A stretch of 64,000 nt of DNA from a virus. The stretch's first letter is position 1, and the number at the start of each line of letters is the position of its first letter. Of the stretch, positions 7,699-55,043 are shown one piece after another. The translations under genes were made by a program, and so were the position numbers. The stretch lies in IMG/VR virus record IMGVR_UViG_3300036985_009306, positions 62,001 through 126,000 of that record, one strand, 5' to 3'. Below the pieces are notes generated by a model. The model did no database searches and was not told where the DNA came from. It saw nothing but the letters and a program-made list of their open reading frames with translations.

Positions 7699-9021
7699 GC
7701 ACATATTGAGAAATGGGCGCTGTTGCAACAGCAACAGTTAGACAATATGGTGCATCAAGTTTTTGCTAAATATAAAGAAAAATTGATAAACAAAAAACCT
7801 GATGACACGTATTTTCTACATCATTCTTATACAGATTATGTTAAAGAATTAAAGAAGCCTTATTTTGAATATGCTAAAAAGTTTAATGAACATGTAGTTA
7901 AGAAGTTAACAATTGATTTTAAAAACGAAAAATTGCTTTTAATTTGGTTATTAGAACAAGTTGTCACAAACCAAATAAAAGCTGTTTCAATTGATGAAGA
8001 TGTTGATGTAATTAAAAACAATTTACATCTTTATTTTGAAAATAAAGGAAAAATTCATAAAAACATATTTGATTCTACATATAATGACCTTAAAAAATGG
8101 GTTGTACCTTATCAACCTAAAGGTGAAGAAAGCAAGCATAAAAAATTTTTAAGCAAACCTTATATTGAGGGAAAAGAATACAAAATTTATAAAATAACAA
8201 AAGTTGATGAGTGTGTAAAGATAAGCAAAGGAACATCATGGTGTACTCAAGGCATAGCAAATGCTGAGTCTTATCTTAAAAAAGGTCCATTGTGGTTAGT
8301 GACAAAAAATGATAAAAGATTTGCTTTGATAAGTTTTGAGTCTGGTTCTTACATGGATGTTAATGATCAGAGGCTAAAACCTGAAGTTGTATTTGAAATT
8401 TTTGATATTTGGCCAGAAGCTGAAAAGAAATTGATTGAAAATTTGAAGGGTAATAGTTATTCAATAAAGTTTTTAAGAAATCTAAGTGAAGAACAACAAC
8501 TTGAGATGATGCCAAAGGAACCTGATGTTTTTCAACATTTATATAAACCAACTGAAAAAGTAATAAATAAAGCTGTTAAAGAAGATGGTTCTAATATTCA
8601 ATATGTCAAGAATCCTTCAAAAGAACTTCAAGAAGAAGCAATTAAGCAAGATGCAGATAACATTGAAAGAATAGATCATATAGATCCTGAAATTGAAAAA
8701 AGACTTATAGATATTAATCCAGATGCAATAAAACATATGAAAAATCCTTCTGAGGAAACTCAAGAAAAAGTTGTCAGGTTACATGGATTAGCAATTAAAC
8801 ATATCAAAGATCCATCTGAAAAGGTTAAATTATTAGCTGTAAAACAAAATGGTAAAGCAATTAGACATTTAAAAGATCCTTCTGTTGAAGTTCAAATGGC
8901 AGCTGTTAATAATAAATGGCATTCTCTTGCTTATATTAAAAATCCAGATAAAAAAGTAATAGAAAGAGCAATAGAGATTGATCCAAGAGCTGAAGAATTT
9001 GTTGACATGAAAGCAATTTAA
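7669..9021 (+). CDS. capsid-targeted-like protein with WCT domain and C-terminal helical repeats
   Basis: A 450-residue protein starting MNILNFVLREA, with L-R-E then A matching the T4-type prohead protease site. Around residues 160-240 is a compact domain with GTSWCTQG, a GPLWLVTK strand and FESGSYMDVND; I have the impression this arrangement recurs in hypothetical phage proteins but cannot name it. Residues ~285-445 are about seven ~22-residue helical repeats of the form I+(Y/H)(I/L/V)K(N/D)PS-x-(E/K)VQ-x-x-A(V/I)K, resembling DUF4116-like repeats. ATGA overlap with the upstream gene, plus a GGAG ribosome site. It is probably packaged in the capsid and could act in the newly infected cell, as T4 Alt and the internal proteins do (inference). 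Confidence 0.7.
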   Translation: MNILNFVLREAHIEKWALLQQQQLDNMVHQVFAKYKEKLINKKPDDTYFLHHSYTDYVKELKKPYFEYAKKFNEHVVKKLTIDFKNEKLLLIWLLEQVVTNQIKAVSIDEDVDVIKNNLHLYFENKGKIHKNIFDSTYNDLKKWVVPYQPKGEESKHKKFLSKPYIEGKEYKIYKITKVDECVKISKGTSWCTQGIANAESYLKKGPLWLVTKNDKRFALISFESGSYMDVNDQRLKPEVVFEIFDIWPEAEKKLIENLKGNSYSIKFLRNLSEEQQLEMMPKEPDVFQHLYKPTEKVINKAVKEDGSNIQYVKNPSKELQEEAIKQDADNIERIDHIDPEIEKRLIDINPDAIKHMKNPSEETQEKVVRLHGLAIKHIKDPSEKVKLLAVKQNGKAIRHLKDPSVEVQMAAVNNKWHSLAYIKNPDKKVIERAIEIDPRAEEFVDMKAI

Positions 9022-9023
9022 TT

Positions 9024-9062
9024 ATGCATAAATATTCAGACAATTGTTTACTTTGTAAGATA
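9024..9062 (+). repeat. N-terminal tag copy (MHKYSDNCLLCKI)
   Basis: Fifth copy, on the 60-residue truncated paralog. Confidence 0.85.
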
Positions 9063-9206
9063 TATTCAAGTGCTAATACATTTGAATTAACTCCAGAAGA
9101 AAAAATAGAGTTAGAAGAAAGTGATAAAGAATTAGAAAAAGAAATAACAGAAAGAAAAAATAAATTAACAAAATCTGAATTAAAAGAACTTCTTCAAATA
9201 GAATAA
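9024..9206 (+). CDS. tagged paralogous protein, copy 4, truncated
   Basis: Only 60 residues: tag MHKYSDNCLLCKI, the FELTPEEKIELEESDKEL block, a short charged helix, then a TAA stop. It matches the first ~60 residues of the copies at 5174-7672 and lacks everything after. It may be a remnant of a longer copy, or a minimal tag-plus-block protein kept on purpose; its conserved sequence and intact start context (taattATGCATAA, as at 5174) argue that it has not decayed freely. No clear ribosome site. The conserved RNA element starts 17 bases after its stop. Confidence 0.5.
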   Translation: MHKYSDNCLLCKIYSSANTFELTPEEKIELEESDKELEKEITERKNKLTKSELKELLQIE

Positions 9207-9222
9207 ATTCTATTTTTATCAA

Positions 9223-9272
9223 GACTACATCTTCAAGATGCTCATAGACCTGGTAGTCAAGGGAGAGCATCT
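9223..9272 (+). ncRNA. conserved pseudoknot RNA element, copy 1
   Basis: GACTAC (9223-9228) pairs with GTAGTC (9253-9258). AGATGCTC (9236-9243), inside that loop, pairs with GAGCATCT (9265-9272) outside it, making an H-type pseudoknot. A competing small hairpin (ATCTT with AAGAT, 9229-9239) overlaps the inner strand. The unpaired parts GACCT and AGGGA are shared with the copy at 24354, and three bases of each could pair. It lies between the truncated tagged gene and the baseplate gene at 9318 and is followed by a pyrimidine-rich stretch. I do not recognise it as a known riboswitch or ribozyme. Confidence 0.65.
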
Positions 9273-9317
9273 CAAATTCCTCTTTATTTCTAAAAAATTT
9301 ATAAAAAGTAATAAGTC

Positions 9318-9848
9318 ATGGCCACAACAGCTGTACAAAGTCCAGTACCCATTTCCTGGAGCATTAAAGGAGCTGCAAATGTTCCTCCTTTAACAATGCT
9401 TATTAACCCAGCAAATTTAGACATAACTTATACTCCCTTAATCACAGAAACTAGAACTCTTGGCGGTTTTGTCCATGAATACTGGGGTGAACAATTAACT
9501 TCTCTTTCAGCCTCAGGAAAAACTGCAATGTTTATAGATAGAACTCAAGGTCTAACAAATGATACAAGATCTACAGAATCATATCAATACTTCATGTCTT
9601 TATTAAATATCTATAAAAACAATGGGAAAGGATACACTACAGATTTTTCTACAGATACAATTCCTGCTTTTAGAGCAAATCCTACAAAAATAGCAAGTCT
9701 TGGTATTGTATCTATGGTATTTGACAAAAGACACTATGATGGTTACTTTGAATCTTTTTCATATACAGAAGAAGCTGCAATGCCATTTAATCTTGACTAC
9801 AATTTTGTATTTAGAGCAATGCGAATTATAGGACAATTAACTGTTTGA
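9318..9848 (+). CDS. baseplate/tail protein of the INP...LGG...WG type, copy 1
   Basis: A 176-residue beta-rich protein with MLINPANLDI, a TRTLGGFVHEYWG stretch and SASGKTAMF. This pattern (INP, then T-x-TLGG, WG, SG-x-T) is that of the N-terminal domain of many phage baseplate/tail proteins next to the hub, often joined to LysM in other phages; no LysM is seen here. It is paralogous to the next gene and sits just before the hub gene, so it probably belongs to the tail-tube/baseplate junction. The ATG at 9318 has only a weak purine tract upstream. Confidence 0.6.
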   Translation: MATTAVQSPVPISWSIKGAANVPPLTMLINPANLDITYTPLITETRTLGGFVHEYWGEQLTSLSASGKTAMFIDRTQGLTNDTRSTESYQYFMSLLNIYKNNGKGYTTDFSTDTIPAFRANPTKIASLGIVSMVFDKRHYDGYFESFSYTEEAAMPFNLDYNFVFRAMRIIGQLTV

Positions 9849-9855
9849 GGAGAAC

Positions 9856-10443
9856 ATGTCTCTTTACACCAATACAAGTTCTAGGAGATACAATAGCAAG
9901 CCTATGGTGTTTGATTTGAATATTGAGTCACCACCTCCTTCATTGACATTGCTTATTAATCCAGCAAATTTAGAAATTAAATATACACCTAAGTTAACTG
10001 AACAGAGAGTAAGATGGGCTGGAACAAGTCCAGGATACATATTTCATGTTCATCATGATGAACTAGATGTTTTGTCTGCTTCAGGAAAGTCTGCTATGTT
10101 TATGTCAGATCATGGTTTAACTAGAACTAATAGAACAGATACATTGGCATATGAGAATATAGAAACATTGGTTGCTTTTTATAGGAATAATGGCTCTAAT
10201 TTTAATCCAAAGTCAAATTCAACTACAAATCCTGCAATGATAAATTCCGTTGGAAGGGTTACGATAACATATAATGGATTTTTATACAAGGGTCATTTTA
10301 TAAGTTTTACATGTACAGAGAGTGATTCGAGTCCATTTAATGTTGATTTTTCTTTTGATTTTAAGGTAACAAGAACATTTGATGTCGGTCAAGTTGGTTC
10401 AAATTTCACAGCAAATTTTACACCTTTTTCGAGTCCATCATGA
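9856..10443 (+). CDS. baseplate/tail protein of the INP type, copy 2
   Basis: A 195-residue paralog of the preceding protein: LLINPANLEIKYTPKLTEQR aligns with the first copy's MLINPANLDITYTPLITETR, and LSASGKSAMFM with LSASGKTAMFI. The Trp-Gly before the SASG block is replaced by a longer His-rich insertion (FHVHHDE). A strong GAGGAGA ribosome site precedes the ATG; the stop overlaps the hub start as ATGA. Such pairs may form hetero-rings at the tube/baseplate junction (inference). Confidence 0.6.
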   Translation: MSLYTNTSSRRYNSKPMVFDLNIESPPPSLTLLINPANLEIKYTPKLTEQRVRWAGTSPGYIFHVHHDELDVLSASGKSAMFMSDHGLTRTNRTDTLAYENIETLVAFYRNNGSNFNPKSNSTTNPAMINSVGRVTITYNGFLYKGHFISFTCTESDSSPFNVDFSFDFKVTRTFDVGQVGSNFTANFTPFSSPS

Positions 10444-12677
10444 ATAATAGAGTTCTAGGTGACGGTCAGAATGTATTGAATCCGGGTTATAGACAACCTG
10501 AGACAGTTCAGTTGGCACCAGATGCATTAGTGTTTATTAATGGGTCAAATATGATGCAAGATCCTGAAGGTAAAGTATTTGACATCAGACAGGATATAAC
10601 AGATATAGAAACAAGTTTGTCAACAGAACAACAGGGAACAGCAGGTTTCACAATTTCTTATCCATCTACATCAGGAGGTAGAGAAGGTCAGTCTAAATAT
10701 AAGAATTTGTTGATAATGTCTGAAGTTATGATTTACTTTAGAGGTCGTTTTTTAAAGAAGAGTCAATCTACACAACAAAAGCAGTTTGTTGGGCCTCAAC
10801 TTCAAGTTGTTCCGCCAGAAGGACCTATAATATATCCATATTATCAGGCATTTTGGGGAATTATTACTTCTATAACAGAGAATTATAATGACGGGGTAAA
10901 TACAATTTCTGTTTCATGTGCAGATATTTTGAGATGGTGGCAAATTACAAATATTACAGTTAATCCTTCTCTTCTTTCTTCTGTAGATAGTCTTAAAAGA
11001 TTTTTGACAAAAAATTATGGTGTGAGTAAGACAGATTTTGCTTTGCTTGAAAAAGGTTTGAAATCAAAAGATGGTGCAGGAAGAGGGGTTTCTTTATTTT
11101 CTACAATTTTTTCAAATAAGACTATTCCAGAAATTTTTGAAGCATGTTGTAATCTTTCTTTACTTCAGATGTCTCCACTTAATGATTATCTTGTTACAGG
11201 ATCTGTTGCTGTTGAAATAGGACAAAAAATACGAGCTGAGATTGATAAAGGACAAATGAATTATTGGCGAGAACGACTTCAACAAGTAGGAAGAAATTTA
11301 AAAATTTATGGATTGAAAAAAGATACTAGAAAAGGTTCGGAAACATTAGGCAAATGGATTATTGATCCTACACAATTAATTACTTATCCTACATTAGAAA
11401 AGACTAAACAATTACAAGATATAGGGAATATAAATACTTTTTATCAGATGTTTCCAGCTGCTCCATCTATAGCAAAAAGCGATAGAAAGAGTCAGTATGA
11501 AATAGCAAATGAGGTAAAAGAAGGAATTGGTTTTGAATTTTTTATGGATGTTAACGGTGAAATTGTATTAAAAATGCCATTCTATAACTTAAATGTAAGT
11601 CAAAATATAAATTCGGTTATTCATGATATAGATATACTAAGTTGGAGTTTTGTTCAAAGTGAATCTGAAGTTGTAACAAGAATCGATGTAACAGGTGCGA
11701 TGGCTAATATATCTGATGGCGGGCATGGTGCTCCTACAGGAATTGCATATAGTCCTTTATTAACTCTTCAATATGGAGAACGAGAACAACAACGTCATAT
11801 GCCATGGCTACGCAATCCTAAACAATGTGAATTTTGGGGAAAAGTTGAATTAGCAAGAGCAAATGCTTTAGTCAGACAAGGAAGTATTTCTATTATAGGA
11901 AGACCGGAACTTAGACTCGGGTATCCAGTTTATATTCCATCAAGAGATGCTTTTTACTATGTCAAAGGAATTGAACATAGATTTAGTTTTGGTGGAAATT
12001 TTTCTACTACTTTAACTGTAGTAGCAGAAAGATCTAAAGGTAAATCTTTAACTCTTTTTAAGAATGTAGGCGGATTAACAGATGAACAAGTTACTACACC
12101 AGGAACATCTATTGCTGAATCTAATACGACAAATAATTTTGTGACACAGCTTTCTATGCCATCAGTTTGTACTCCAAGAGCAAAGGAGCATGTGTCTGTA
12201 GTCAAACCAAATTTTGCAATTGATTTATCTCAGATATCTTCAATGCCTTTTGGGGATTGGCAGCTGTCAACAGGACAGGAAGTAGATCCTACTTCTGCAA
12301 CAGGACAATTTCAAGTTACAGATGCCGATGGATATGAATTAATGGGACAAATGGGTGCTGAACCTTATATTAGTTATGGCTATGGTTTACGATTTTCGGC
12401 TAATAGCACTATTGATCAACCTCTTTCAAATGCGTTATCCTCAAAAGCAGCAATAGGTGCAGCACAAGCACTTAAGTTAAAAGTAGAAAACAATTCTCTT
12501 GTAATTAATCCGAACAATGTTGCTTGGACATTGGATTCTGAAGCAAGTCAGGGTGCCAAGATGATAGATTCTGGTGATACTGGTCCTGCAAATAATGCTG
12601 CAAAAGCACAAAAACTTTCACCTGATTCTGTTATTCCTGAAGGATTTACAGGTTCTTTGGGAGCAGCAATTCCTTAA
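10440..12677 (+). CDS. baseplate hub protein (gp27/XkdQ-like)
   Basis: A 745-residue protein placed between the INP-type pair and the spike, as in contractile tail modules. The N-terminal ~180 residues have the alternating strands of hub tube-like domains (FINGSNMMQD, DIRQDITDIETSLS, AFWGIITSITENYNDG, ISVSCADILRWW). A later domain includes GYPVYIPSRDAFYYVKGIEHRF, split over two strands, a GYPV..Y+KG+.H pattern typical of gpD/gp27/XkdQ hub proteins. The last ~170 residues are Ser/Ala-rich and poorly structured. The identification rests on pattern and position. Confidence 0.65.
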   Translation: MNNRVLGDGQNVLNPGYRQPETVQLAPDALVFINGSNMMQDPEGKVFDIRQDITDIETSLSTEQQGTAGFTISYPSTSGGREGQSKYKNLLIMSEVMIYFRGRFLKKSQSTQQKQFVGPQLQVVPPEGPIIYPYYQAFWGIITSITENYNDGVNTISVSCADILRWWQITNITVNPSLLSSVDSLKRFLTKNYGVSKTDFALLEKGLKSKDGAGRGVSLFSTIFSNKTIPEIFEACCNLSLLQMSPLNDYLVTGSVAVEIGQKIRAEIDKGQMNYWRERLQQVGRNLKIYGLKKDTRKGSETLGKWIIDPTQLITYPTLEKTKQLQDIGNINTFYQMFPAAPSIAKSDRKSQYEIANEVKEGIGFEFFMDVNGEIVLKMPFYNLNVSQNINSVIHDIDILSWSFVQSESEVVTRIDVTGAMANISDGGHGAPTGIAYSPLLTLQYGEREQQRHMPWLRNPKQCEFWGKVELARANALVRQGSISIIGRPELRLGYPVYIPSRDAFYYVKGIEHRFSFGGNFSTTLTVVAERSKGKSLTLFKNVGGLTDEQVTTPGTSIAESNTTNNFVTQLSMPSVCTPRAKEHVSVVKPNFAIDLSQISSMPFGDWQLSTGQEVDPTSATGQFQVTDADGYELMGQMGAEPYISYGYGLRFSANSTIDQPLSNALSSKAAIGAAQALKLKVENNSLVINPNNVAWTLDSEASQGAKMIDSGDTGPANNAAKAQKLSPDSVIPEGFTGSLGAAIP

Positions 12678-12695
12678 CTCACTTAGGAAAATTAA

Positions 12696-14789
12696 ATGCC
12701 TCATCAACTACCATTAAGATCTGGTGAAGATCCTTACAGAGGTAAAGAAGTTGATATAACTAAATACACAAGATTGGGTTATATCACTAGAGTTGACTAT
12801 GAGACTGGTTATGTTGACATCACTTGGTTAGAAGGTAGAGGTTTTACTCCTTTTGTTCGCTTGCCTCTATCACATGCTTCTTTAAGAAGCACTATCCGTG
12901 GAATGCCAGAAGTAGGAAGCGTTGTGATTTGCGGGTGGTCTCGTCAATCACAAACTTGGGAGGATCCTGTTATCCTTGGTTTCACAGATTTTAGTCTAGA
13001 GACCTTACTAGAATATAGGCTTCTTAGAAATGACAAAACTTCACAAGCATTAACAGACATAGCGACAATTCGAGAAAAAATAGGCTACAATGTAATCAGA
13101 GGAAAACGTAGAAAAATATATCCTGGTGAAATTCAAATAGAATCATCTCCAGGAGCTGAACTATATCTTGATGAAGATGTCTATCTCTCAGACAGCAAAC
13201 TTAATGAAATAGAAATAAGATCAGCTGATAAATCTATTCGTTTATCCTCTAATCAGATTTATACTCTTACTCAAGCTTCTCGTACTTGGAATGGATTAGT
13301 TGCTAGAGAACCTGGTGATTTAAAATTTAATTTTCAACCAACAACACTTCCTAATGGTCAAAAAGTACAATTTGTCACTGATTCAAATAATCCATTACAT
13401 GTCGGCGGTCAAGCATTTACAGAACATAGAATTGAAATGTATGAAACATCTAATGGCATAATGAAAGCTTCTGAAGTTAATGCCGGTTATGATGTAAATG
13501 CTCAACAGCCTTTTTTGACTTATGTTTTGGGAACATTAGTCGGTAATGATAAAACTGATATAGCAAAGTATGCTAAAGTATTAAGACCTCAAATTTTTGG
13601 GATACCTTTTGCATCTGAAGTTTCTTTAGATTATCTAGAATGTACTCCAGAAGAATATTCAAAACTTTCATCTGCTGTAAGTCTTAAATTGTTGTCTAGA
13701 GCAAGAATAGATATTGACAAAGAAGGGCATCTTTTTACTTTCTTTCCTGCATCATCTGGTGCACATTCTTTAGGAGCAGGAAGAAGTTGGGAAGGTGCAT
13801 TTGAAGGTGCAGTAAAACTTCTTTTGGGTGCTGACAATGTAGACAATAAATCTTTGTATTTAGACACTAAAGGTGGCATTAAAGCTACTTTGGGTTATGA
13901 TAGAGAAGGAAAAAGTAGCAATATTGTAGCACAAAAAGGAATGTATGTAGAAGTAATCGCTCCGGGTAATGATGGCAATTCTTATTATTTAAAAACAAAG
14001 GGTCCATATAAAGGTTTAATAGATGGACCTTATAATTTAGAAGTTACAGGTGATTATAATGTTGTAGTTCATGGAAAATATATTGTACAATCTTTGGGAA
14101 CAAGAGAAGAGAGTTTTGTCAATGACAAAAACAATATGTATGGTGGATCTTATAAAAAGATTGTTATAAAAGATAAACAAGAGCAAATAGGTTATAATAG
14201 AGATACACGAATAACAGGTAGTTTAGAAAGAGCTCCTGGAATTTTTACTCCAGCATTGCCTTCTCAAATTACAGATGGTTTGTTGTTGACCACAGGTACT
14301 AGAGATGAAAAGTATCTGAACGGGAATTTAAAGAGAACAATTCTTTTGGGAGATGAACATGATACGATTGTTAAAGGAAATATGGTTGAAGATCTTACAT
14401 TGGGTGACAAGACTACAAGTGTTAAGGTCGGAAATATTAATCAGAACATCATTAACGGATCTTCAACAGAAGCAATCGTAAATGGATCAAAAAAAATTTC
14501 TATTAAGAGTGGTTCATTTGTAGTAGAAATTGTTGCAGGTGATGTGCAAGTGAAGACAAGTTTGGGCGCAATTAAAATTAATTCAATAGCACAAACAGTT
14601 GATATAAATGGTGCGTTAGTAGTTACAATCAAGAGTGGGGTTAAATTAAATTTGTCAGGACCTCTTGTACAAATTGGGTCGCTTCCAGCTGTCGGCGGGG
14701 TCGTCACGGGCCTTCCGACACCTACACATCTCGATTTCGTCGTAGGATTGCCATTGCTTGCAAGCAAGACAGTAAGTGCATCTATGTAG
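12696..14789 (+). CDS. baseplate central spike protein (gp5/VgrG-like)
   Basis: A 697-residue protein. Residues ~20-115 look like the OB-fold domain of gp5/VgrG spikes (LGYITRVDYETGYVDITWLE, MPEVGSVVICGW, DPVILGF). After ~430 the sequence becomes a run of short strands with Gly, Asn and Lys (DLTLGDKTTSVKVGNIN, KKISIKSGSFVVEI), typical of the triangular beta-helix needle. The last ~40 residues (GGVVTGLPTPTHLDFVVG) resemble a tip or PAAR-adjacent sequence. No lysozyme domain is evident. The DNA of the tip is unusually GC-rich (48 of 80 bases at 14676-14755). Confidence 0.75.
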   Translation: MPHQLPLRSGEDPYRGKEVDITKYTRLGYITRVDYETGYVDITWLEGRGFTPFVRLPLSHASLRSTIRGMPEVGSVVICGWSRQSQTWEDPVILGFTDFSLETLLEYRLLRNDKTSQALTDIATIREKIGYNVIRGKRRKIYPGEIQIESSPGAELYLDEDVYLSDSKLNEIEIRSADKSIRLSSNQIYTLTQASRTWNGLVAREPGDLKFNFQPTTLPNGQKVQFVTDSNNPLHVGGQAFTEHRIEMYETSNGIMKASEVNAGYDVNAQQPFLTYVLGTLVGNDKTDIAKYAKVLRPQIFGIPFASEVSLDYLECTPEEYSKLSSAVSLKLLSRARIDIDKEGHLFTFFPASSGAHSLGAGRSWEGAFEGAVKLLLGADNVDNKSLYLDTKGGIKATLGYDREGKSSNIVAQKGMYVEVIAPGNDGNSYYLKTKGPYKGLIDGPYNLEVTGDYNVVVHGKYIVQSLGTREESFVNDKNNMYGGSYKKIVIKDKQEQIGYNRDTRITGSLERAPGIFTPALPSQITDGLLLTTGTRDEKYLNGNLKRTILLGDEHDTIVKGNMVEDLTLGDKTTSVKVGNINQNIINGSSTEAIVNGSKKISIKSGSFVVEIVAGDVQVKTSLGAIKINSIAQTVDINGALVVTIKSGVKLNLSGPLVQIGSLPAVGGVVTGLPTPTHLDFVVGLPLLASKTVSASM

Positions 14790-14841
14790 ATATTTTATGA
14801 AATTAGTATTTGTTTTGTAATAACAAAAATTGAGATTTATC

Positions 14842-15432
14842 ATGCCAATTTCAGGTCCAGTGTTCTCAGGGTTATTAATGGTTGAACTTGCTTCACAAGG
14901 ATTTACAGGAGCACAATTACTACAACTCTCAAATGGTATAGGTAATGGAGTTGCAAATTATTTGTTGACTTCTGCTATTTATCAAGGTGTAGGTATTGGA
15001 ACAACAGTTGGAGCAGGAGTAGGAACCGGTTTTGTTCAAGGAATAGTAGGACCTGTTGCAGGAATGAATATATTTCAAATGATGACTGCTGTTGGTTTTA
15101 CTGGTCCCAAGGCTATTCAAATGGCAATGGCAATAGGAAATGCTTTTTCATCTTTTATATCTTTGGGAATTGTTAATTCTGTTTGTATAGGTATGGCAAT
15201 AGGAACTGGAACTGGAACTCTTATAGTAGCAGGTCCTGCTATGGCGGCAAGTATTATGGGTATGTTGACAGCTGTTGGGTTTACTGGTTCTCAAACATTG
15301 CAATTAGCAATGGCAATAGGAAATGGAATATGTAACACAATTTTGTCATCAGGAATAGTAATGACTGTACTAGTTGGGGGAGGTTTTCCGCCAATTCCTA
15401 TGACAGGTGTAGATATAGGAATGTTATCTTAA
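14842..15432 (+). CDS. hydrophobic Gly-rich repeat protein following the spike
   Basis: A 196-residue protein, very rich in Gly, Ala, Ile and Met, made of three related units each holding GFTG-x3-(L/I)QL/M...AIGNG/A (beginning near residues 19, 85 and 150). Between repeats are glycine-zipper-like runs such as GIGTTVGAGVGTG. I chose ATG 14842 (MPISGP) over an upstream in-frame TTG at 14830 because GAG sits 8 bases before it. Its place right after the spike suggests a spike tip partner or a membrane-interacting virion component; I believe similar proteins occur next to spike genes in other large phages, but I cannot name the family. Confidence 0.65.
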   Translation: MPISGPVFSGLLMVELASQGFTGAQLLQLSNGIGNGVANYLLTSAIYQGVGIGTTVGAGVGTGFVQGIVGPVAGMNIFQMMTAVGFTGPKAIQMAMAIGNAFSSFISLGIVNSVCIGMAIGTGTGTLIVAGPAMAASIMGMLTAVGFTGSQTLQLAMAIGNGICNTILSSGIVMTVLVGGGFPPIPMTGVDIGMLS

Positions 15433-15442
15433 TAGGAGATGT

Positions 15443-18400
15443 ATGAGCACACTCTTAACACAATCTGATCAGAATATTCTTGAAGATTCTAAACAAAACA
15501 CACAAGATCAGAATCAGTCTATTCAACAATCATCTGTTACTATTACTACAGAGATAGCAAGTTTACTTTTAGTTGATGTACCTTTTAAGAAACAATTAGA
15601 TCCAATTCATGTCAATATTTTTGCATTTGAAGAAGAGTTAAGAAGATTAAATGGAACTTCTATAATTCAACCATTGCAAGAAAAAGGTTTTACAATTTCT
15701 GACACATCATCTAATTTTGCCCGTCTTTATATTAATAATGGAAGATTAATAATAACAGAAAATACAATTCTTCCAGTATCTGTTGTTCTTACTATAGATG
15801 TAGGTTTAAAAATTTTAAATGTTGGTCCAAGTTTATCATTATCTGTTGGACAATTTATTGTTATTGCTTATGATTTTTATAATCAAATGCAAGGTGAAAT
15901 TGTTGCTTATAATTCTTCTACAGGCTCACTTTCTGTAAATGTTATTACGATTACTGGATCGGGAACATATTCTACTTGGAGCATATACACGCAGATATTT
16001 AATGGACCATTGTTTCCTATGAGAGGATATAGTAGATCTCGATTTGCAGGAACTCAACAGACAGGAACAATCACAAATCTTAGTACAACTATTTCAGGAT
16101 TAACATCAACTGCAAAACTAAGATCAACAGGAATAATAAAGACAGCAGGAAGTTTTGTGATTGGAGCAAATTATATAATTGTGTTCATTGGATCTACAGA
16201 TTTTACTTTAATTGGTGCTAGTTCAAATGCTGTAGGAGTAACTTTTACAGCAACTGGAGTTGGTTCAGGTACAGGAACAGCAACTACAAATCCAGGTCAA
16301 TTTGTAAGTGGAACAGGAATCCCGAAAAATGCTTTTATTATGAGTATAGCTAGTTCTACAAGCATAATAATATCTCAACCGTGTACAACAAGTGGTTCTA
16401 TAACTATAACTTTTGGTTCAGATTTTGATATCTGGTCAAGAGATCGTTATGGTGCAACAACTTCATCAAAACAAACAGGTTCACCTTATATAATAGACAA
16501 ATATCATAAAAAACTTAAAGTAACATTTGATGGTGTAACTACTGTTGAAATAGATTTGTCTAATTTGATAAGCATTGATCAAGTAGATGAAGTGGTTATT
16601 TCAAATACATTAGGGACAGAGACCGCCGTTCAATTAAAATATTTTCCTGTAATTTCTTCTACTGATTCTATTTCTTTGTCTTTAAGTTCATTTGTACTTA
16701 TTGATAAAGCACAATATATGGTAGATTATAATACAGGAATTATTACGTTTTTGCAGGCTATTCGATCTGGTTTCAAGATGACCGCTGATTATGAGAATTT
16801 GGATGGAACTTATAGTGAAACAGTTTTTGAAAATACTACAGGTGCAGAAACTGTAGCTCAGTTAACACATATTCCTATGTTTGGATCTATAGTAACTCTT
16901 ACAACAACATTTATTACTATCAATTTAGTAAGAGGAACTGATTATAATATTGATTATTCTACGGGATATGTGACACTTCTTACACCAATAGTAGATAATG
17001 TCCAAATGTTAGCCTCATATGAAAATTCAGCGAATGTTTTACCTTCTTCATTGGCATCTTCAATTCAATTGTTGATTCAGAATTCTGATCCTTCATTAGA
17101 AAAGATTGCATGTGTTTTTAATATATCTATTAATACTTTTACAATAATATCTGGTTCTGGACCGTCTGCTTCTGTTCAGGTAGTTCCTTGTTCTGATTTA
17201 ATAGTTGGAGAGATTGATTTGATGAATTATTTGGGCTTTGATCAACAGTTTATGATTCAAGGAAAGTATCAAAACAATCTCTTAAATGTTGCAATAGATG
17301 CTACTCTTGCAGGAAATTTTGTTGTAGATGCTAAATATACAATTGTATCAATTGGAACAACAGATTTTACTTCAATAGGAGCAAGTTCAAATACAGTAGG
17401 TCTTATTTTTACGGCAACAGGAATGGGTTCGGGAACAGGTGTTGCTGCAACTTCAAGTCAAATAAGTGAGATCAAGATATCAGATTTCAGGAGATGTTTT
17501 CAAGATGCTAATCTAGGGTATGATAATGATGATCTCGGGTATGACTGGTCAGGTGGTTTAGATAAGCCTCTTGGTTATATAGGGGCAAATAAAGTAGGCC
17601 CTCTATTTTGTTCTGGCATATCAAACGGGAAGGATGTTGCAAAGTCAATAGAAGCACAACTTAGGATGGTAGGATCTGGTGGTTTTATAAATGCTAAAGT
17701 ATCTTATTTTACGAGAGATAATATTTTTATTATCTATAGTGGAACTATGGGTCCAAATTCATCTGTTCATGTTATTCCTGCATCTGATTCTGATAGAGAT
17801 GCAATGAATCTAGTTGGTTATGTGTTTCCTCCTGTTTTTCCAGAAGAAGAAAGAGGAAATGAACAATATTATAATACTTTAAGAGATCTTTATGATAAGC
17901 TAGCAACAGTATCTCATATTCAAGTTTCTGGTTTGAATAATCCATCGACATTGAGTCATTCAATTTTGTATCAACAACTTAATGGTGTTAATATTAGTTC
18001 TAGTTTTAATGATAATGTAGATCTTACTACGACTCTTATTTATGATTATGGATCAAGAGGTTTACCAAGGCTTTATCCTAATGGAAAACTAGTCATAGAT
18101 AGTAGTAATAATATGATTAATTTTTTTGAAACAACTGATATAGAACTTGCTGTAACTATAGCATCAGGTACATATACCAGTGAACATGATGTAGCAACTG
18201 TTATTCAGAGCGCCCTTGGTTCTGGGTATACTTGTACTTATAGTTCTCAACAGAAGAAGTTTACAATTGCAAAAAATACAGGAAGTTTTGGATTGTTGTT
18301 TCAAACAGGCGCAAATGCTTTAACAGGTATTGGTAATTATATAGGTTTTAACACAAGTGATAAGACACTAGCAACTTCATTTACATCTGATTTTCAAGTA

Positions 18401-21400
18401 ACTTTTCAGATGACAGATTATTTTAATCCTTTTTTGCCAAATCAATTTGATGGGGCTCCTAAAGCACCTGATTATACTGTTGATGAATATTCTGCATTAT
18501 TATATGAGCAATTAATTTTGGGATTAGAAAGTCCTATATTGGTTGCATTGCAAAATGAACTTACTCTTAACAATAATGAAGTTTTATTAGATGGATGGGA
18601 AAGTATTGCAAATATAGAATTTTTTAAGACACAACAAGAAGACACTGCTTTAAGATATCAAAAAGGTGCATATGTAAGTCATATTAGCGAAAATGATTCT
18701 GTTACAACAAATATAGATACAGCTTTAGCAAATTTAACCCCTAATTTTAATAATTTGACTTCATTAGAAACGCATATTTTATTGCACTCTCATGCGGCAA
18801 TATTAAATCTAACTCAATATTTACAATCATTTTCTGTTTCGCCTGTTACGATAGTTGCAGGAGCAGGTTCTAAGATTTACAACAATCCTCCTATATTAGT
18901 TTCTTATGAAAATGTTTTAAAACAAATTACTGGTAGATGGAATCTACCTTATCTATTTTGTTCATCTACAACTTTTACGCCCGATATTGTAATATCTACT
19001 CTTACAAATAATAGAGATGGTGTTGAAGGATATAGTTATTCAGGGCAAACACCAAGTGGATCATTTTTTATTACTGACGACACTAATGCTGTTGTGACAG
19101 GAACTACAACAGGACCATTTGATTTGTCTGTTTCTAATACTTTATTATTTGAAATTGATGGAGGAGGTGCTCAAACTGCAGAAGCTACTGCAACAGCAGG
19201 GTATACGCAAAGTAGATCTGCTGCTACATCAGGGTTTGTTATTAAAGCAAATACAAATGATTGGATAGATTTTAAAGAAGCTATAACAGAATTACATGCT
19301 CAAATTTCACCAGGAGTTTATGATGTTGCAAGTTTGACAACTGAAATACAAAACAAAATGAATGCAGCAGGAACTTATATATATTCTGTTTCTTATGCAG
19401 CAAATACTTTTGCTATAACAACAACATCTATTTTTCAATTGTTATTTCTTACTGGAGTTCATAATTCGACAAGTATTGCTTATACAATGGGGTACAGTAT
19501 TTTAGATCATTCTGGATCTTTAGTTTATATTGCAGAAGGTTTTTCAATATTTCCTGTCATTACTGGAGTAAATGATACTTTTATTACTTCGATTAATGGG
19601 AGTTCTAGTTCAATAGTCACAATTTCTCAGGGAAGATATAATTCATCTGGTTTGATAATTGAGATGACAAACAAAATTGGTTTACAAATTCCAGTCGGAC
19701 AATTTAACATAACATATTCTTCAGATTTGTTTGTAATTACTTCTACAATTCGAGGTACTGTATCTGTAGTGGAAGTTTATGAAGGGACAAATGATTTTCT
19801 TAGAACAATAAAATTGGATGCCGATGTTCCAGTTCATGGTACGGGTAATGTAGCAAATGTTGCTACAGTTTCTGTAGATGAATTTGTAAGTATTTTAAGC
19901 GTATTGTCTGGGTTTACTGTTTCAAATAGTTCTAATCATATAAAAATGCAAACAAATTCAATATTAGGTTCTTTAAGTTCGATTGAATTCACAGGTGGAT
20001 CGGCTATAGCTATTCTTGGATTTGTTGTAGGAACAACAACAGGTATAGATGCCAACAATAGATTGAAGGTTGATATAGATGGTGATTTGTCTAAACCGGA
20101 CATAATATTAACTACAGGTACTCTTACTGGTTCACAGATTGCGTCTGATATTCAGACAAAACTTCAGGTGATTGGTAGTGGAGGATATGCTGCATCTATA
20201 TGTACTTGGAATGAGACGACTGTATGGGCTAGTTTTACTAATGCTTTTAGAATTGTATCAGGAACAAGAGGAATTTCTTCTACAGTAAATGTAAGTAGTG
20301 GTTCAGCAATTCCGGTGTTGAAGTTTGATACTCAGACTATAGTGAATGGACAAATTGTTGTTGATATACAAGCAACTTTAGATAGTACAAGTTTTAAATC
20401 AGTTTTGTCATTAGGTAATTCAACGACTAGAATGGATTTGAATTTTAATATTGCTGTTGCTCCATATAATAAAGTTGTCAATTTAGTTGATGCAATTAAT
20501 ACATCACCTTTTTATTCTGATGCTACTTTGACTAAAGCAAATTTAATTTCTAGAATAGCTGAACCATATAGAATAGAAAATGTTGATACTTTAATTGTTA
20601 CTGCAAATGGTGAAGCACCGCAGACTTTAACTTTTCATGCAGTTCATGGAACATCTGTTTCAGGAAGTGGCGGTCATACAAGAATTTATAGTTCTAATAA
20701 TAGAATAGGGATTAGTTTAAATGGTTATACTAGAATTGAGATCACAATTGGAGCTCAACTTTCTGCTTATGATATTGCAATAAATATTCAATTACAGGTA
20801 AGATCAATTATAGTACCAAATGATAGTGAATTGCAAGCTGCATATTCTCAATTTACTTGTAGTTATGTAGGAACAAGGTATTATTTAACTTCTGGGACTG
20901 GAGGAACAGGATCATCTGTTGTAATTACAGATGCATTATCAAACAATGCTGCAGTAGATTTGAAACTTGGTGTTATGAATGGAGGATATGAAGATCCAGG
21001 TTCAGGTAATTTTGTAAATAGTTCTTTTGTTACTAAATCTGAGTTAGAATCCATAATATATGGATCAGGTTTTGAATGTGATTTGACAAGTGATGATTAT
21101 TTGAAGATTCAAAGTTCTACTACTGATGATACTTCTAGAATTCAGATAGCAGGTACAGCAAAATCTAAATTAGGTTTTGATTTAAATGATGATTCTTATC
21201 CTTCTTCAGATTTTAGCAATCTAGATACTTCACAACTTATGCAATTTGCAGATCAAAGCATTATGTCTCCCATAATGTATAAAGTTAGAATTGGATTTTT
21301 ATCTGGATTAGGTAGCATTAATGTCACTTATTATACTACAGATAATTCTCAAATTACTGCAAGATTACCTATAATTTCTAGTAGGTTACCTACAATTCCT

Positions 21401-21616
21401 GCAAGGTTAGCTCAGATAACTGCAAGGGCTAATACAATTGTCAGTGCATTGACTCCTACTCTTTATAATTCTAGAAAGAGTCCTGTGACTGTACGTTCAA
21501 ATAAAAAGACAGGAAGTTATGTGCAAGTAGGAAATAAACTTAATCAACAAGATAATAATCAGAGTGCAATAAGTACTAATAATGGTCTTATATCTACAAT
21601 AAACTCTATGTTGTAA
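15443..21616 (+). CDS. giant beta-rich baseplate/fibre protein
   Basis: A 2057-residue Ser/Thr/Ile-rich protein, nearly all predicted strand. It holds two copies of a ~46-residue module centred on TDFTLIGASSN-x-VG with a GSGTGTA end, one module of the MQGEIVAYNSSTGSLSVNV / GSGTYSTWSI type, and two or more 'DYN(I/T)DY-x-TG-x-(V/I)TLL' units. Middle regions contain repeated DI-x(2)-(A/Q)LR/ALG-like motifs typical of virion beta-domains. The final ~80 residues contain ARLP-type short repeats (ITARLPIISSRLPTIPARL) and a Gln/Asn-rich end. Strong AGGAGA ribosome site. No enzymatic motif seen. Confidence 0.6.
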   Translation: MSTLLTQSDQNILEDSKQNTQDQNQSIQQSSVTITTEIASLLLVDVPFKKQLDPIHVNIFAFEEELRRLNGTSIIQPLQEKGFTISDTSSNFARLYINNGRLIITENTILPVSVVLTIDVGLKILNVGPSLSLSVGQFIVIAYDFYNQMQGEIVAYNSSTGSLSVNVITITGSGTYSTWSIYTQIFNGPLFPMRGYSRSRFAGTQQTGTITNLSTTISGLTSTAKLRSTGIIKTAGSFVIGANYIIVFIGSTDFTLIGASSNAVGVTFTATGVGSGTGTATTNPGQFVSGTGIPKNAFIMSIASSTSIIISQPCTTSGSITITFGSDFDIWSRDRYGATTSSKQTGSPYIIDKYHKKLKVTFDGVTTVEIDLSNLISIDQVDEVVISNTLGTETAVQLKYFPVISSTDSISLSLSSFVLIDKAQYMVDYNTGIITFLQAIRSGFKMTADYENLDGTYSETVFENTTGAETVAQLTHIPMFGSIVTLTTTFITINLVRGTDYNIDYSTGYVTLLTPIVDNVQMLASYENSANVLPSSLASSIQLLIQNSDPSLEKIACVFNISINTFTIISGSGPSASVQVVPCSDLIVGEIDLMNYLGFDQQFMIQGKYQNNLLNVAIDATLAGNFVVDAKYTIVSIGTTDFTSIGASSNTVGLIFTATGMGSGTGVAATSSQISEIKISDFRRCFQDANLGYDNDDLGYDWSGGLDKPLGYIGANKVGPLFCSGISNGKDVAKSIEAQLRMVGSGGFINAKVSYFTRDNIFIIYSGTMGPNSSVHVIPASDSDRDAMNLVGYVFPPVFPEEERGNEQYYNTLRDLYDKLATVSHIQVSGLNNPSTLSHSILYQQLNGVNISSSFNDNVDLTTTLIYDYGSRGLPRLYPNGKLVIDSSNNMINFFETTDIELAVTIASGTYTSEHDVATVIQSALGSGYTCTYSSQQKKFTIAKNTGSFGLLFQTGANALTGIGNYIGFNTSDKTLATSFTSDFQVTFQMTDYFNPFLPNQFDGAPKAPDYTVDEYSALLYEQLILGLESPILVALQNELTLNNNEVLLDGWESIANIEFFKTQQEDTALRYQKGAYVSHISENDSVTTNIDTALANLTPNFNNLTSLETHILLHSHAAILNLTQYLQSFSVSPVTIVAGAGSKIYNNPPILVSYENVLKQITGRWNLPYLFCSSTTFTPDIVISTLTNNRDGVEGYSYSGQTPSGSFFITDDTNAVVTGTTTGPFDLSVSNTLLFEIDGGGAQTAEATATAGYTQSRSAATSGFVIKANTNDWIDFKEAITELHAQISPGVYDVASLTTEIQNKMNAAGTYIYSVSYAANTFAITTTSIFQLLFLTGVHNSTSIAYTMGYSILDHSGSLVYIAEGFSIFPVITGVNDTFITSINGSSSSIVTISQGRYNSSGLIIEMTNKIGLQIPVGQFNITYSSDLFVITSTIRGTVSVVEVYEGTNDFLRTIKLDADVPVHGTGNVANVATVSVDEFVSILSVLSGFTVSNSSNHIKMQTNSILGSLSSIEFTGGSAIAILGFVVGTTTGIDANNRLKVDIDGDLSKPDIILTTGTLTGSQIASDIQTKLQVIGSGGYAASICTWNETTVWASFTNAFRIVSGTRGISSTVNVSSGSAIPVLKFDTQTIVNGQIVVDIQATLDSTSFKSVLSLGNSTTRMDLNFNIAVAPYNKVVNLVDAINTSPFYSDATLTKANLISRIAEPYRIENVDTLIVTANGEAPQTLTFHAVHGTSVSGSGGHTRIYSSNNRIGISLNGYTRIEITIGAQLSAYDIAINIQLQVRSIIVPNDSELQAAYSQFTCSYVGTRYYLTSGTGGTGSSVVITDALSNNAAVDLKLGVMNGGYEDPGSGNFVNSSFVTKSELESIIYGSGFECDLTSDDYLKIQSSTTDDTSRIQIAGTAKSKLGFDLNDDSYPSSDFSNLDTSQLMQFADQSIMSPIMYKVRIGFLSGLGSINVTYYTTDNSQITARLPIISSRLPTIPARLAQITARANTIVSALTPTLYNSRKSPVTVRSNKKTGSYVQVGNKLNQQDNNQSAISTNNGLISTINSML
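16145..16282 (+). repeat. TDFTLIGASSN fibre module, copy 1
   Basis: ~46-codon unit from AGSFVIGANYIIVFIG to GSGTGTA; also at 17309, 33772 and 33991. Confidence 0.85.
17309..17449 (+). repeat. TDFTLIGASSN fibre module, copy 2
   Basis: Second copy in the same gene, beginning AGNFVVDAKYTIVSIG and reading TDFTSIGASSNTVG. Confidence 0.85.
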
Positions 21617-21623
21617 GGAAATC

Positions 21624-21845
21624 ATGACTGAAGAATTAAGTTGGAAAAAGAGGACATCAGCCAGATCTGAATTTGTGGATAATTTAGAAAGATTGGTGAA
21701 AAGTGTTGTAATGATAGAAATTAATCAAATTAATTCAAAGATTGAAAGTTTGTGTGCTATGGGAGTTATAAAAGATGATGTTCAAGTACGAGAATTAAGA
21801 GAAAAAATAAAACAACTACAGACAGGAATGCAACATGGCAAATAA
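21624..21845 (+). CDS. small coiled-coil protein, unknown function
   Basis: A 73-residue helical protein starting MTEELSWKKRT with a charged C-terminal helix (VRELREKIKQLQTGM). AAGGAAATC lies before the ATG; its end overlaps the next gene by 11 bases. The next protein starts in a similar way (MANNLTWSKID), which may reflect a shared docking sequence. Likely a virion assembly component by context only. Confidence 0.6.
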   Translation: MTEELSWKKRTSARSEFVDNLERLVKSVVMIEINQINSKIESLCAMGVIKDDVQVRELREKIKQLQTGMQHGK

Positions 21846-24309: not shown

Positions 24310-24353
24310 CTTTTTCTATAGTTTTTATTTATTTCTAAATTATACACCATTAA

Positions 24354-24408
24354 GACTACATATCTTCAAAGATATTCATTGACCTTTTGTAGTCGAGGGA
24401 GAATATCT
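24354..24408 (+). ncRNA. conserved pseudoknot RNA element, copy 2
   Basis: GACTAC (24354-24359) pairs with GTAGTC (24389-24394); AGATATTC (24370-24377) pairs with GAATATCT (24401-24408). Relative to copy 1 the inner helix differs at two positions on each strand and both changes keep pairing (GC to AT pairs). The competing hairpin is also kept and is longer (ATATCTT with AAGATAT). GACCT and GAGGGA are conserved in the linkers. A T-rich tract and then a TATAAATA box (24442) follow, so the element is probably at the 3' end of the upstream transcript. Confidence 0.65.
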
Positions 24409-24441
24409 AGCTTCCTTTTTTCTATAATTTTTATAGTTATG

Positions 24442-24450
24442 TATAAATAG
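24442..24450 (+). promoter_or_regulatory. T4-type late promoter-like TATAAATAG
   Basis: TATAAATA is the T4 late -10 consensus recognised with a gp55-type sigma. It lies 51 bases before the TTG start of the gene at 24501 and downstream of the pseudoknot. The window also encodes a divergent sigma factor (53392). Confidence 0.45.
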
Positions 24451-24500
24451 ACACAATCCCATTAATTGTTAATCAATTATAAACAAAAGGATTTGTTAAC

Positions 24501-25022
24501 TTGGCTTTCAATTTTTTAGGAACATTAAGTTCACCTCAACTTCAAGATTTAAGAAGTTTTCTTGAAGAGCAAATAGTAGATATTAATGAAGAGATTAACT
24601 ATCTATATGTAGAAATGAATAATCTAAGACAGACGTTGTCATATTTTTCTACAGCAGATAATTTTTTTGGAGGAAGTGCTTCTAATGTTCTTTATGAAAC
24701 ACAACTTCATGATTTAGTTAAAGTTACAAAACAAGATGATAGTGTTTCAGCAGATTTAATGTCGCAAGTAAAACAGCCATTTATATCTACAATAAAGTAT
24801 AAAAGAGAGAGAAATGAATATAAAATGAAGAAATTGCTTGATGCAATAGAACAATCTAAAGAAATGATAGATAGAAAATCTGCTGCAAAAACAGAAACAA
24901 AATCATTTTTAGATCAAATAGAGCGTATGATTGCAGATGATAATAATAATATTTTGTTTCCTTCTGAACAAGCCAGAAAAGATTTTGCTAAAGGTGTCGT
25001 TAAAACAGAGTCTAAAACATAA
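24501..25022 (+). CDS. helical structural protein with TTG start
   Basis: A 173-residue, strongly helical, charged protein (FLEEQIVDINEEINYLYVEM, then LLDAIEQSKEMIDRKSAAK). It starts with TTG preceded by AAAGGA about 10 bases upstream; the first in-frame ATG is 38 codons in and would delete a well-formed helix, so TTG is preferred. The stop overlaps the next ATG as TAATG. It is the first gene after the second pseudoknot and the late-promoter-like box. Perhaps a chaperone or a helical baseplate component (inference). Confidence 0.6.
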   Translation: MAFNFLGTLSSPQLQDLRSFLEEQIVDINEEINYLYVEMNNLRQTLSYFSTADNFFGGSASNVLYETQLHDLVKVTKQDDSVSADLMSQVKQPFISTIKYKRERNEYKMKKLLDAIEQSKEMIDRKSAAKTETKSFLDQIERMIADDNNNILFPSEQARKDFAKGVVKTESKT

Positions 25023-53391: not shown

Positions 53392-54582
53392 ATGAAGCTT
53401 TCGGAAAAATTTTTTTCATTATTACCTTCCAATATATCTCATCAAACAACAAAGTTTTTTACTGTTTTTTCTGATCCTTCAGATAAGAAGGCTTATTTTT
53501 CAGGTAAACGTGTCCAATTACTTGAATATGATGAAGCTTTTGGTGAAGGTTTTATGCGGATAACTGAAGAAGAAGCAAGAAAAAAACATGTCGGTAAAAT
53601 AAGGTGTTTGGGTATAGTATCTGATGAATATAGATTGTTAGTTGCTTTTTCAAAGTATTTTAAGTTTGATACTCCTCTTGCTTATGCACTTCCTCAATCT
53701 ATAAAAGTTAAAAAGAGTAGAATTGTTTTAAAAGTTCATAGATTAGAATTGAAGATAGATCAACAACCTTCTGATAGAGATGAAAAAGATTTGATTATAG
53801 CTTATAGAAAAACTGAAGATCAGAAAGAAAAAAATAGATTGTTTAATGTTATTCTTTTTCAAAGAGGAGTAAATGGAAAAACTTGGCATCAAATAATCAA
53901 AAATTATGTTTCCTATAATAGACATAAATTTGTCAATCTTCTGGATAGAACTGAGGACGATTTTTATCAGGATATAGTGATAGCGGTTCAAAAGCAAATT
54001 GCTAAATGGTTTGATCCTAATAAACATTGTTGTTTTTCTACTTATGCTTGGTATGTTATTAATTGTGCATTTCATAGAGTCTTGCAACAACTTTCTACAC
54101 AAAAACGAAAAGTTTCTTCTAATAATGTTGATTTAGATGACCAAGATTCAACCTGGAATGAAACAATTTCTGCTGAAAAAACTTTAATGCCTCAACAAAC
54201 AAGTTTTGAAAATGAGTTTGAACAAAAGAATTTGTGTTCTCAAATTATGAAAATGTTTGAACTTAAAGAAATCAATGCACCTGACAGTTTAAAACAGGAT
54301 TTGTTGAAGATAATTAAAGAAAAATCTACAATGCAAAATTCTTTATATACTTTAGCCAAAAAATACAACATGGAATCTAATGAGATTTTTAAGATTGAAA
54401 TGACTCTTAGAGAAAATTTGAAAAATGCTATGTATAATGATATAATTTTAAATATGCAATATGATATAAATGCTGATGAAGAAATTGCAAAAAAATATAG
54501 AAGATCAAAAGGTCATGTCATAAAGATGAAGAGACAATTAAGTACTATTGTAAAGAAAAAATTGAAAGGTGTTGAAGCATAA
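53392..54582 (+). CDS. phage sigma factor (sigma-70 family, divergent)
   Basis: 396 residues. Residues ~186-242 look like sigma region 2: DDFYQDIVIAVQKQIAKWFD, then FSTYAWYVINCAFHRVL (the aromatic/-10 segment) and a basic end. The C-terminal ~35 residues (DEEIAKKYRRSKGHVIKMKR) form a region-4-like helix-turn-helix. The N-terminal ~180 residues match nothing I know. Longer than T4 gp55 (185). It would redirect host RNA polymerase to phage promoters such as TATAAATA (inference). AGGAGGACATT ribosome site; coupled to a NusG-like gene by TAATG. Confidence 0.75.
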   Translation: MKLSEKFFSLLPSNISHQTTKFFTVFSDPSDKKAYFSGKRVQLLEYDEAFGEGFMRITEEEARKKHVGKIRCLGIVSDEYRLLVAFSKYFKFDTPLAYALPQSIKVKKSRIVLKVHRLELKIDQQPSDRDEKDLIIAYRKTEDQKEKNRLFNVILFQRGVNGKTWHQIIKNYVSYNRHKFVNLLDRTEDDFYQDIVIAVQKQIAKWFDPNKHCCFSTYAWYVINCAFHRVLQQLSTQKRKVSSNNVDLDDQDSTWNETISAEKTLMPQQTSFENEFEQKNLCSQIMKMFELKEINAPDSLKQDLLKIIKEKSTMQNSLYTLAKKYNMESNEIFKIEMTLRENLKNAMYNDIILNMQYDINADEEIAKKYRRSKGHVIKMKRQLSTIVKKKLKGVEA

Positions 54583-55043
54583 TGAAAAGATTAGGTTGGT
54601 ACATTTTATTAGCAAAACAAGGTTTTGAGAATTCAATAAAAGAAGATATTCATATTTGTAAAGAAGAATTTTCAATTGAGGACATTTTAGTTTCTGAAGA
54701 ACTTTCAGGTTATGTTTTTATTCGTTCTATTGAAATTTCTAATGATTGTCTTCATTTTTTATTGAGTATCAATGGTGTTGTAAAATTTCTTGGCAAAAAA
54801 CATGAGAATGGAAAAACTTTACTTCAAAAATTTAGCAATAGTGAAATAGACAAACTAAGACTTCAACCCAAAAAGAATATGAGAGAAGTTTTTCAAATTG
54901 GAGATCAAATAATCATCAAACGAGGAGATTTAGCTGATATTGAAGGCAGGATTATCGAAATAAAAAAGAGAATAGTCAAAATTCAACCTACAATATTTCA
55001 TAAAGTCGTAAGAGCAAGAATCCAAGATATAGAGTTCATATGA
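54582..55043 (+). CDS. NusG-like transcription factor
   Basis: 153 residues. The N-terminal ~100 resemble an NGN domain (GWYILLAKQGFENSIKEDI, GYVFIRS, VVKFLGKK); residues ~106-135 are a KOW motif (FQIGDQIIIKRGDLADIEG). NusG/Spt5 proteins bind the RNA polymerase clamp and affect pausing and termination. Shorter than bacterial NusG (~180). Coupled to the sigma gene upstream, so both probably act together on late transcription; specialised NusG paralogs such as RfaH are antiterminators. Confidence 0.75.
   Translation: MKRLGWYILLAKQGFENSIKEDIHICKEEFSIEDILVSEELSGYVFIRSIEISNDCLHFLLSINGVVKFLGKKHENGKTLLQKFSNSEIDKLRLQPKKNMREVFQIGDQIIIKRGDLADIEGRIIEIKKRIVKIQPTIFHKVVRARIQDIEFI

What the first reader, a model, noticed from the sequence alone, without database searches (positions are those of the whole stretch)
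9223..9272. Undescribed-looking conserved pseudoknot RNA, copy 1
Two intergenic regions 15 kb apart share the same H-type pseudoknot: GACTAC/GTAGTC outer helix, an 8-bp inner helix crossing it, constant linkers GACCT and AGGGA, and an overlapping small hairpin that competes with the inner helix. The inner helix differs between copies but keeps all pairs. Overlapping alternative folds are a hallmark of switches, antiterminator RNAs or processing signals. The phage also encodes sigma and NusG-like proteins, so a put-like antitermination RNA is one option (inference).
Basis: partly seen in the sequence, partly recalled or inferred. Interest (0 to 1): 0.8.

Follow-up and report, generated by a model that had tools for sequence, protein, structure and literature searches.

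The report
Kink-turn pseudoknot RNA in phage operons
Large phages related to this one carry a small, previously uncatalogued folded RNA between their virion genes; it is built on a sharp RNA bend (kink-turn) of the type that usually needs a protein to fold, so it probably marks where the phage controls its late messages.

Summary
Both window copies form the described H-type pseudoknot, and the virus record holds a third copy 2.1 kb before the window. Related phages give 16 distinct elements. All three helices covary: P1 47/47 cells paired, P2 134/135, the new helix P3 52/52. P1 has at least three unrelated sequences.

The "constant linkers" GACCT and AGGGA are a standard kink-turn: a 3-nt bulge AUN, tandem GA/GA, and a short helix CCU/AGG that covaries. 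It is present in 16/16, whereas P1 occurs in only 8/16; the others close with a 4-8 nt loop. The first C-G pair after the GA pairs is invariant, a sequence that by published rules cannot fold in Mg2+ alone. This points to a protein-bound RNA.

Elements always sit between late virion genes. Four short-loop copies look like intrinsic terminators, and relatives without the element can have plain terminators there.

There was no Rfam match. The competing hairpin is not conserved (2/8). A put- or LoaP-like antitermination role is possible but unproven. Best reading: a new phage RNA family, a protein-dependent kink-turn switch acting on late transcripts. The partner protein is unknown.

The parts
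9223..9272 (+). Element copy 1 (site b), whole pseudoknotted kink-turn RNA
9223..9228 (+). P1 5' strand GACTAC, pairs with 9253-9258 GTAGTC
   Evidence: P1 covaries among 8 elements, 47/47 cells paired
9236..9243 (+). P2 (C helix) 5' strand AGATGCTC, pairs with 9265-9272 GAGCATCT
   Evidence: 134/135 cells paired, 28 double changes over 16 elements
9244..9248 (+). Kink-turn bulge ATA plus GA (tandem G.A pairs with GA 9263-9264)
   Evidence: AUN + GA / GA invariant in 16/16 elements
9249..9251 (+). P3 (NC helix) CCT, pairs with AGG 9260-9262
   Evidence: 52/52 cells paired, 16 double changes; first pair C-G in 16/16
9253..9258 (+). P1 3' strand GTAGTC inside the terminal loop
9260..9264 (+). 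P3 3' strand AGG and kink-turn GA
9265..9272 (+). P2 3' strand GAGCATCT
24354..24408 (+). Element copy 2 (site c): P1 24354-24359/24389-24394, P2 24370-24377/24401-24408, bulge ATT 24378-24380, GA 24381-24382 / 24399-24400, P3 24383-24385/24396-24398
   Evidence: the same site is occupied in G001, G003 and G007
24313..24329 (+). Promoter-like motif TTTCTATAGTTTTTATT just upstream of copy 2 (inferred)
   Evidence: strand-specific and intergenic in the virus record, 5 of 5 sites with 0-1 mismatch
24419..24435 (+). Second promoter-like motif TTTCTATAATTTTTATA, just downstream of copy 2 (inferred)
9318..9848 (+). ORF downstream of copy 1 (176 aa, virion-region protein, no family hit)
   Evidence: homologs in most compared phages
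24501..25022 (+). ORF downstream of copy 2 (173 aa)
54582..55043 (+). NusG-like protein, candidate but unproven partner
   Evidence: PF02357 2.8e-7; phrog_6386 transcription antiterminator 5.4e-10

Best explanation
What it is (shown by sequence comparison): a cis-acting RNA element of about 35-60 nt in the intergenic gaps of the one-strand late (virion gene) region of a group of large tailed phages. Its core is a hairpin broken by a standard kink-turn (P2, AUN bulge, GA/GA, P3). In one subgroup, including both window copies, the terminal loop pairs back to a strand just 5' of the hairpin (P1), giving an H-type pseudoknot. How it works (inferred): the invariant C-G pair next to the GA pairs means the kink should not form in Mg2+ alone. 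The RNA should therefore stay extended until a kink-turn-binding protein, of host or phage, folds it; in the P1 subgroup the loop-to-5'-strand pairing may do part of that work, as the long-range loop contact does in the SAM-I riboswitch. The folded ribonucleoprotein then most likely acts on the transcript at the junction between two virion gene blocks, by setting 3'-end formation, termination or read-through between the upstream and downstream genes, rather than by covering a ribosome binding site.
For: All helices covary, beating every one of 5000 column shuffles: P1 14, P2 28 and P3 16 double-change cells; A4 structure test. CCT/AGG changes to CTC/GAG, CCC/GGG, CCA/TGG, CCG/CGG and CTATG/CATAG. 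The covariance models find 3 copies in this virus record, 2 in G001, 2 in G007 and 1 in most other relatives. Location: between virion genes in every case. 3b.3n = C-G in 16/16; such kink-turns do not fold in Mg2+ alone (PMC4382518), and tertiary contacts can rescue folding (PMC3651934). Short-loop copies in L245, L248, L249 and L252 run straight into 6-7 T in 8 nt. Several element-less relatives have plain terminator-like hairpins at the same place (Tunturi_5).
Against: No partner protein was found: L7Ae-family searches were negative, and no clear RNA-binding protein follows the element's distribution. None of the 8 P1-type copies has a terminator U-tract, and three of them (G000 first site, G001 first site, L243) sit directly behind a separate terminator-like hairpin, so they are not themselves terminators. 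Sites b and c have no clear terminator in front. No transcript data exist.
Confidence: 0.45

Rival explanations
1. Processive antitermination site (nut/put/LoaP-like): the phage NusG-like protein binds the kink-turn hairpin in the nascent RNA and rides with RNA polymerase through the late gene blocks.
For: NusG-like gene beside a sigma-like gene; NusG homologs in G003, G007 and G020, which carry the element; several copies in one operon region; LoaP precedent (PMC12691694).
Against: Not found in G001 (210 kb, 2 copies); present in the element-less G011, G012 and G017. Terminator-like sites are no more frequent than in shuffles at 8900-25100. LoaP recognises a UNCG hairpin, which is absent here.
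Confidence: 0.2
2. Leader switch for translation: a kink-turn-binding protein folds the 5' leader and changes ribosome access to the next gene, as archaeal L7Ae does for its own mRNA.
For: In the 5' UTR of the next gene in all copies; kink-turn sequence of the type that needs protein (PMC6298567).
Against: Start codons lie well outside the structure, typically 35-120 nt downstream; the downstream genes differ between sites; no L7Ae-family gene.
Confidence: 0.15
3. RNA processing or stability element: the folded knot protects or exposes a 5' or 3' mRNA end, or is a nuclease site that separates gene blocks.
For: Position between two genes, sometimes directly behind a terminator-like hairpin, where only read-through transcripts hold it.
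Against: No nuclease signature or known stabilising RNA family found.
Confidence: 0.15
4. Two-state switch in which the purine strand RRGGAGA pairs with flanking CU-rich tracts instead of forming the kink-turn.
For: The best nested fold of copy 2 is P1 as a plain hairpin plus GAGGGAG/CUUCCUU; CU-rich tracts flank most copies.
Against: Pairing with the flanks beats shuffles clearly in only some copies and is weak downstream in G001 and G003; copy 1 folds to the kink-turn hairpin.
Confidence: 0.15

Closest known systems
Standard kink-turn (Kt-7, U4 snRNA, box C/D, archaeal l7ae leader)
   Same: 3-nt bulge, tandem G.A/A.G, C and NC helices; Watson-Crick 3b.3n as in U4 and l7ae leaders
   Different: Found in phage late intergenic RNA, no L7Ae gene in these phages, and in half of the copies the loop forms a pseudoknot
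SAM-I riboswitch P2 arm
   Same: A kink-turned hairpin whose terminal loop makes a long-range pairing
   Different: No four-way junction or ligand core, no Rfam match; SAM-I kink-turns are biased to sequences that fold in Mg2+, unlike this one
LoaP/dfn hairpin (NusG-paralog antitermination)
   Same: Hairpin in untranslated RNA ahead of long gene blocks; phage encodes a NusG-like protein
   Different: No UNCG tetraloop; NusG does not follow the element's distribution; no downstream terminator excess
put RNA of phage HK022
   Same: Phage RNA structure in an untranslated stretch ahead of genes
   Different: put (from memory) is a pair of stem-loops without a kink-turn or pseudoknot; no direct sequence or structure comparison was run
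Intrinsic terminators after virion genes
   Same: Position after the upstream stop codon; four short-loop copies have a U-rich tail
   Different: Kink-turn inside the stem; pseudoknotted copies lack a U-tract

Membership tests
Standard kink-turn | 3-nt bulge followed by G.A and A.G pairs | tested here: met
   AUN + GA / GA in 16/16 elements; note that the descriptor used requires GA/GA
Standard kink-turn | C and NC helices on both sides, supported by covariation | tested here: met
   P2 134/135 and P3 52/52 cells paired, many double changes
Standard kink-turn | Axial kink of about 50 degrees included angle | not testable with these tools
   needs FRET or a structure
H-type pseudoknot | Two crossing helices supported by covariation | tested here: met
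   P1 47/47 with at least three unrelated sequences in 8 elements; absent in 8 others
Any Rfam 15 family | Score above gathering or a credible E-value | tested here: not met
LoaP-type antitermination element | UNCG-type tetraloop hairpin | tested here: not met
   loops are GAAA, ACAT, ATTA, TAAAT or long P1 loops
LoaP-type antitermination element | NusG paralog that binds the RNA | tested here: inconclusive
   gene present in some element-bearing records, not found in G001; binding not testable
put antitermination RNA | Stem-loops acting on RNA polymerase without protein | not tested
   no put model was run apart from the Rfam scan
Intrinsic terminator | Stem followed directly by a U-tract | tested here: inconclusive
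   at least 6 T in the next 8 nt in 4 of 16, all short-loop copies
SAM-I riboswitch | SAM-binding four-way junction core | tested here: not met
   no Rfam SAM hit; element is one hairpin plus P1

The most novel reading that the evidence does not exclude
A new class of phage gene-expression device: a kink-turn ribonucleoprotein switch, optionally locked by a pseudoknot, that a phage or host protein folds to set transcription read-through between virion gene blocks, with all copies within a phage recognised by the same factor.
Probability: 0.3. Interest if true: 0.8.

Novelty: new variant of a known kind. Interest (0 to 1): 0.62.

Why it matters
Kink-turns are central to ribosomes, box C/D RNPs and riboswitches. 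Here one forms the conserved core of a phage RNA, with strong three-helix covariation and a sequence signature that predicts protein-dependent folding. It gives a direct way to look for a kink-turn-binding protein used by phages or their hosts, and a testable control point for the ratio of late virion proteins.

Tried and rejected
Competing hairpin as a switch: not conserved (2 of 8). Alternative pairing with CU-rich flanks: only partly better than shuffles, left as a rival. tRNA or tmRNA: none. Known Rfam RNA: none. Pattern scans without structure gave mostly chance matches, many probably in coding DNA. A scan with CTCATTGACC...GGGAGAG added no new phage. L7Ae-family protein in the phages: none. 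Proteins found in element-bearing G001, G007 and G020 but not in G012, G014 or G017: a PD-(D/E)XK-like protein, a 207-aa protein and a ResIII/UvsW-like helicase, none a clear kink-turn binder; G007 pieces were incomplete. No bacterial genome contig encoded a relative of the 824-aa protein, so the host is unknown.

Full report
1. Observation. The window is bases 62001-126000 of a 192 kb virus record whose genes are almost all on the + strand. Copy 1 is at 9223-9272 between ORFs ending at 9206 and starting at 9318. Copy 2 is at 24354-24408 between ORFs ending at 24309 and starting at 24501. GACTAC...GTAGTC is found twice against 0.03 expected. Both copies have the crossing 8-bp inner helix, and two of its pairs differ by compensatory double changes.

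2. Finding relatives. A sequence pattern in the viral collection gave one true relative among 45 hits: L030/G001, with a third copy in front of a 61%-identical homolog of the 24501 gene. Homologs of that gene showed the same place occupied in L051/G003 and L054/L055/G007. L051 changed CCT/AGG to CTC/GAG, which revealed the third helix. A covariance model built on five copies and run over 18 whole records found further copies: a third in this record (59835-59891), a second in G001 and in G007, and one each in G002, G004 and G008. Homologs of the ~205-aa virion protein upstream of that site (alignment A5; a distant homolog in phage Tunturi_5 is annotated virion structural protein) gave 80 loci. 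The element sits behind this gene in L241-L252, all at least 48% identical, and was not found in L253-L320. A second model confirmed 3 copies in this record, 2 in G001, 2 in G007 and 1 in most others.

3. Structure. Over 16 distinct elements the core reads P2 5' strand - AUN - GA - P3 - loop - P3' - GA - P2 3' strand. P2 is paired in 134/135 cells with 28 double-change cells; P3 in 52/52 with 16; P1, in the 8 long-loop elements, in 47/47 with 14. None of 5000 column shuffles reached these values. Column shuffling ignores relatedness, and the helices were aligned by hand, so these counts are not probabilities; but P1 sequences as different as GACTAC/GTAGTC, AACTGC/GCAGTT and GGATTG/CAATCC need independent paired change. 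The first five-sequence alignment, made by MAFFT, agrees and beats slid controls. Copy 1's best nested fold is exactly the kink-turn hairpin.

4. Folding prediction. The pair after the GA pairs (3b.3n) is C-G in 16/16, although the neighbouring pairs vary. McPhee et al. show that Watson-Crick 3b.3n, C-G and G-C especially, does not fold in Mg2+ alone, while L7Ae can fold such a kink-turn (PMC4382518). In SAM-I, tertiary contact of the kinked arm's loop can stabilise a kink-turn that does not fold in isolation (PMC3651934); P1 may do the same here (inference). This makes a protein-bound element more likely than a metabolite sensor.

5. Context. Each element follows the upstream stop by about 10-90 nt and usually precedes the next start by 35-120 nt. 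Three sites are used: (a) after the ~205-aa virion gene, before a ~470-aa gene and long downstream genes; (b) before ORF 9318 (only this phage); (c) before the 24501 gene. At site a, G000, G001 and L243 have a separate terminator-like hairpin directly 5' of the element (fold z -3.3). In the short-loop relatives L245, L248, L249 and L252 the kink-turn hairpin itself is followed by a U-tract, and several more distant relatives have plain terminator-like hairpins there. A motif TTTCTATAnTTTTTATT, strand-specific and intergenic in this record, flanks copy 2 on both sides and may be a promoter.

6. Partners. The NusG-like protein (54582-55043) and a sigma-like protein are present. NusG homologs occur in G003, G007 and G020, were not found in G001, and occur in element-less G011, G012 and G017. 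Records may be fragments, so the co-occurrence test is inconclusive. No L7Ae-family gene was found.

7. Known or new. No Rfam family matches. Literature searches in the open-access library found no phage kink-turn pseudoknot element. Its parts (kink-turn, H-type pseudoknot) are known; the combination, place and family appear new.

8. Verdict. Structure: shown by covariation, high confidence (about 0.95 for the P2/P3 kink-turn, about 0.9 for P1 in its subgroup). Function: inferred, moderate to low confidence.

Noticed in passing
G000:C1:59835-59891 (2.1 kb before the window; L209): Third copy of the element in the same virus record, with a different P1 (ACTGCA/TGCAGT), directly behind a terminator-like hairpin.
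   Followed up: yes
window 24313-24329 and 24419-24435; also G000:C1:15962 and 28818: Strand-specific intergenic motif TTTCTATAnTTTTTATT, a candidate phage promoter; similar sequence at the same locus in G001.
   Followed up: partly
window 3795, 5174, 5814, 6797, 9024, 42133: Six ORFs share the start MHKYS(D/E)NC..C, a small zinc-finger-like N-terminus on otherwise different proteins.
   Followed up: no
window 53392-55043: Sigma-like (weak Pfam region 2) and NusG-like genes side by side.
   Followed up: partly
window 49401-50693: Phage-encoded complete trigger factor (N-terminal, FKBP and C-terminal domains).
   Followed up: no
L065, about 9.6-10.0 kb: Repeats resembling a short CRISPR array (TTCCCCGCACACGCGGGGAT) beside a homolog of the 24501 gene in a viral contig.
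   Followed up: no
window 24354-24420: Best nested fold of copy 2 is an alternative: P1 as a simple hairpin plus GAGGGAG/CUUCCUU, which would remove the kink-turn.
   Followed up: partly
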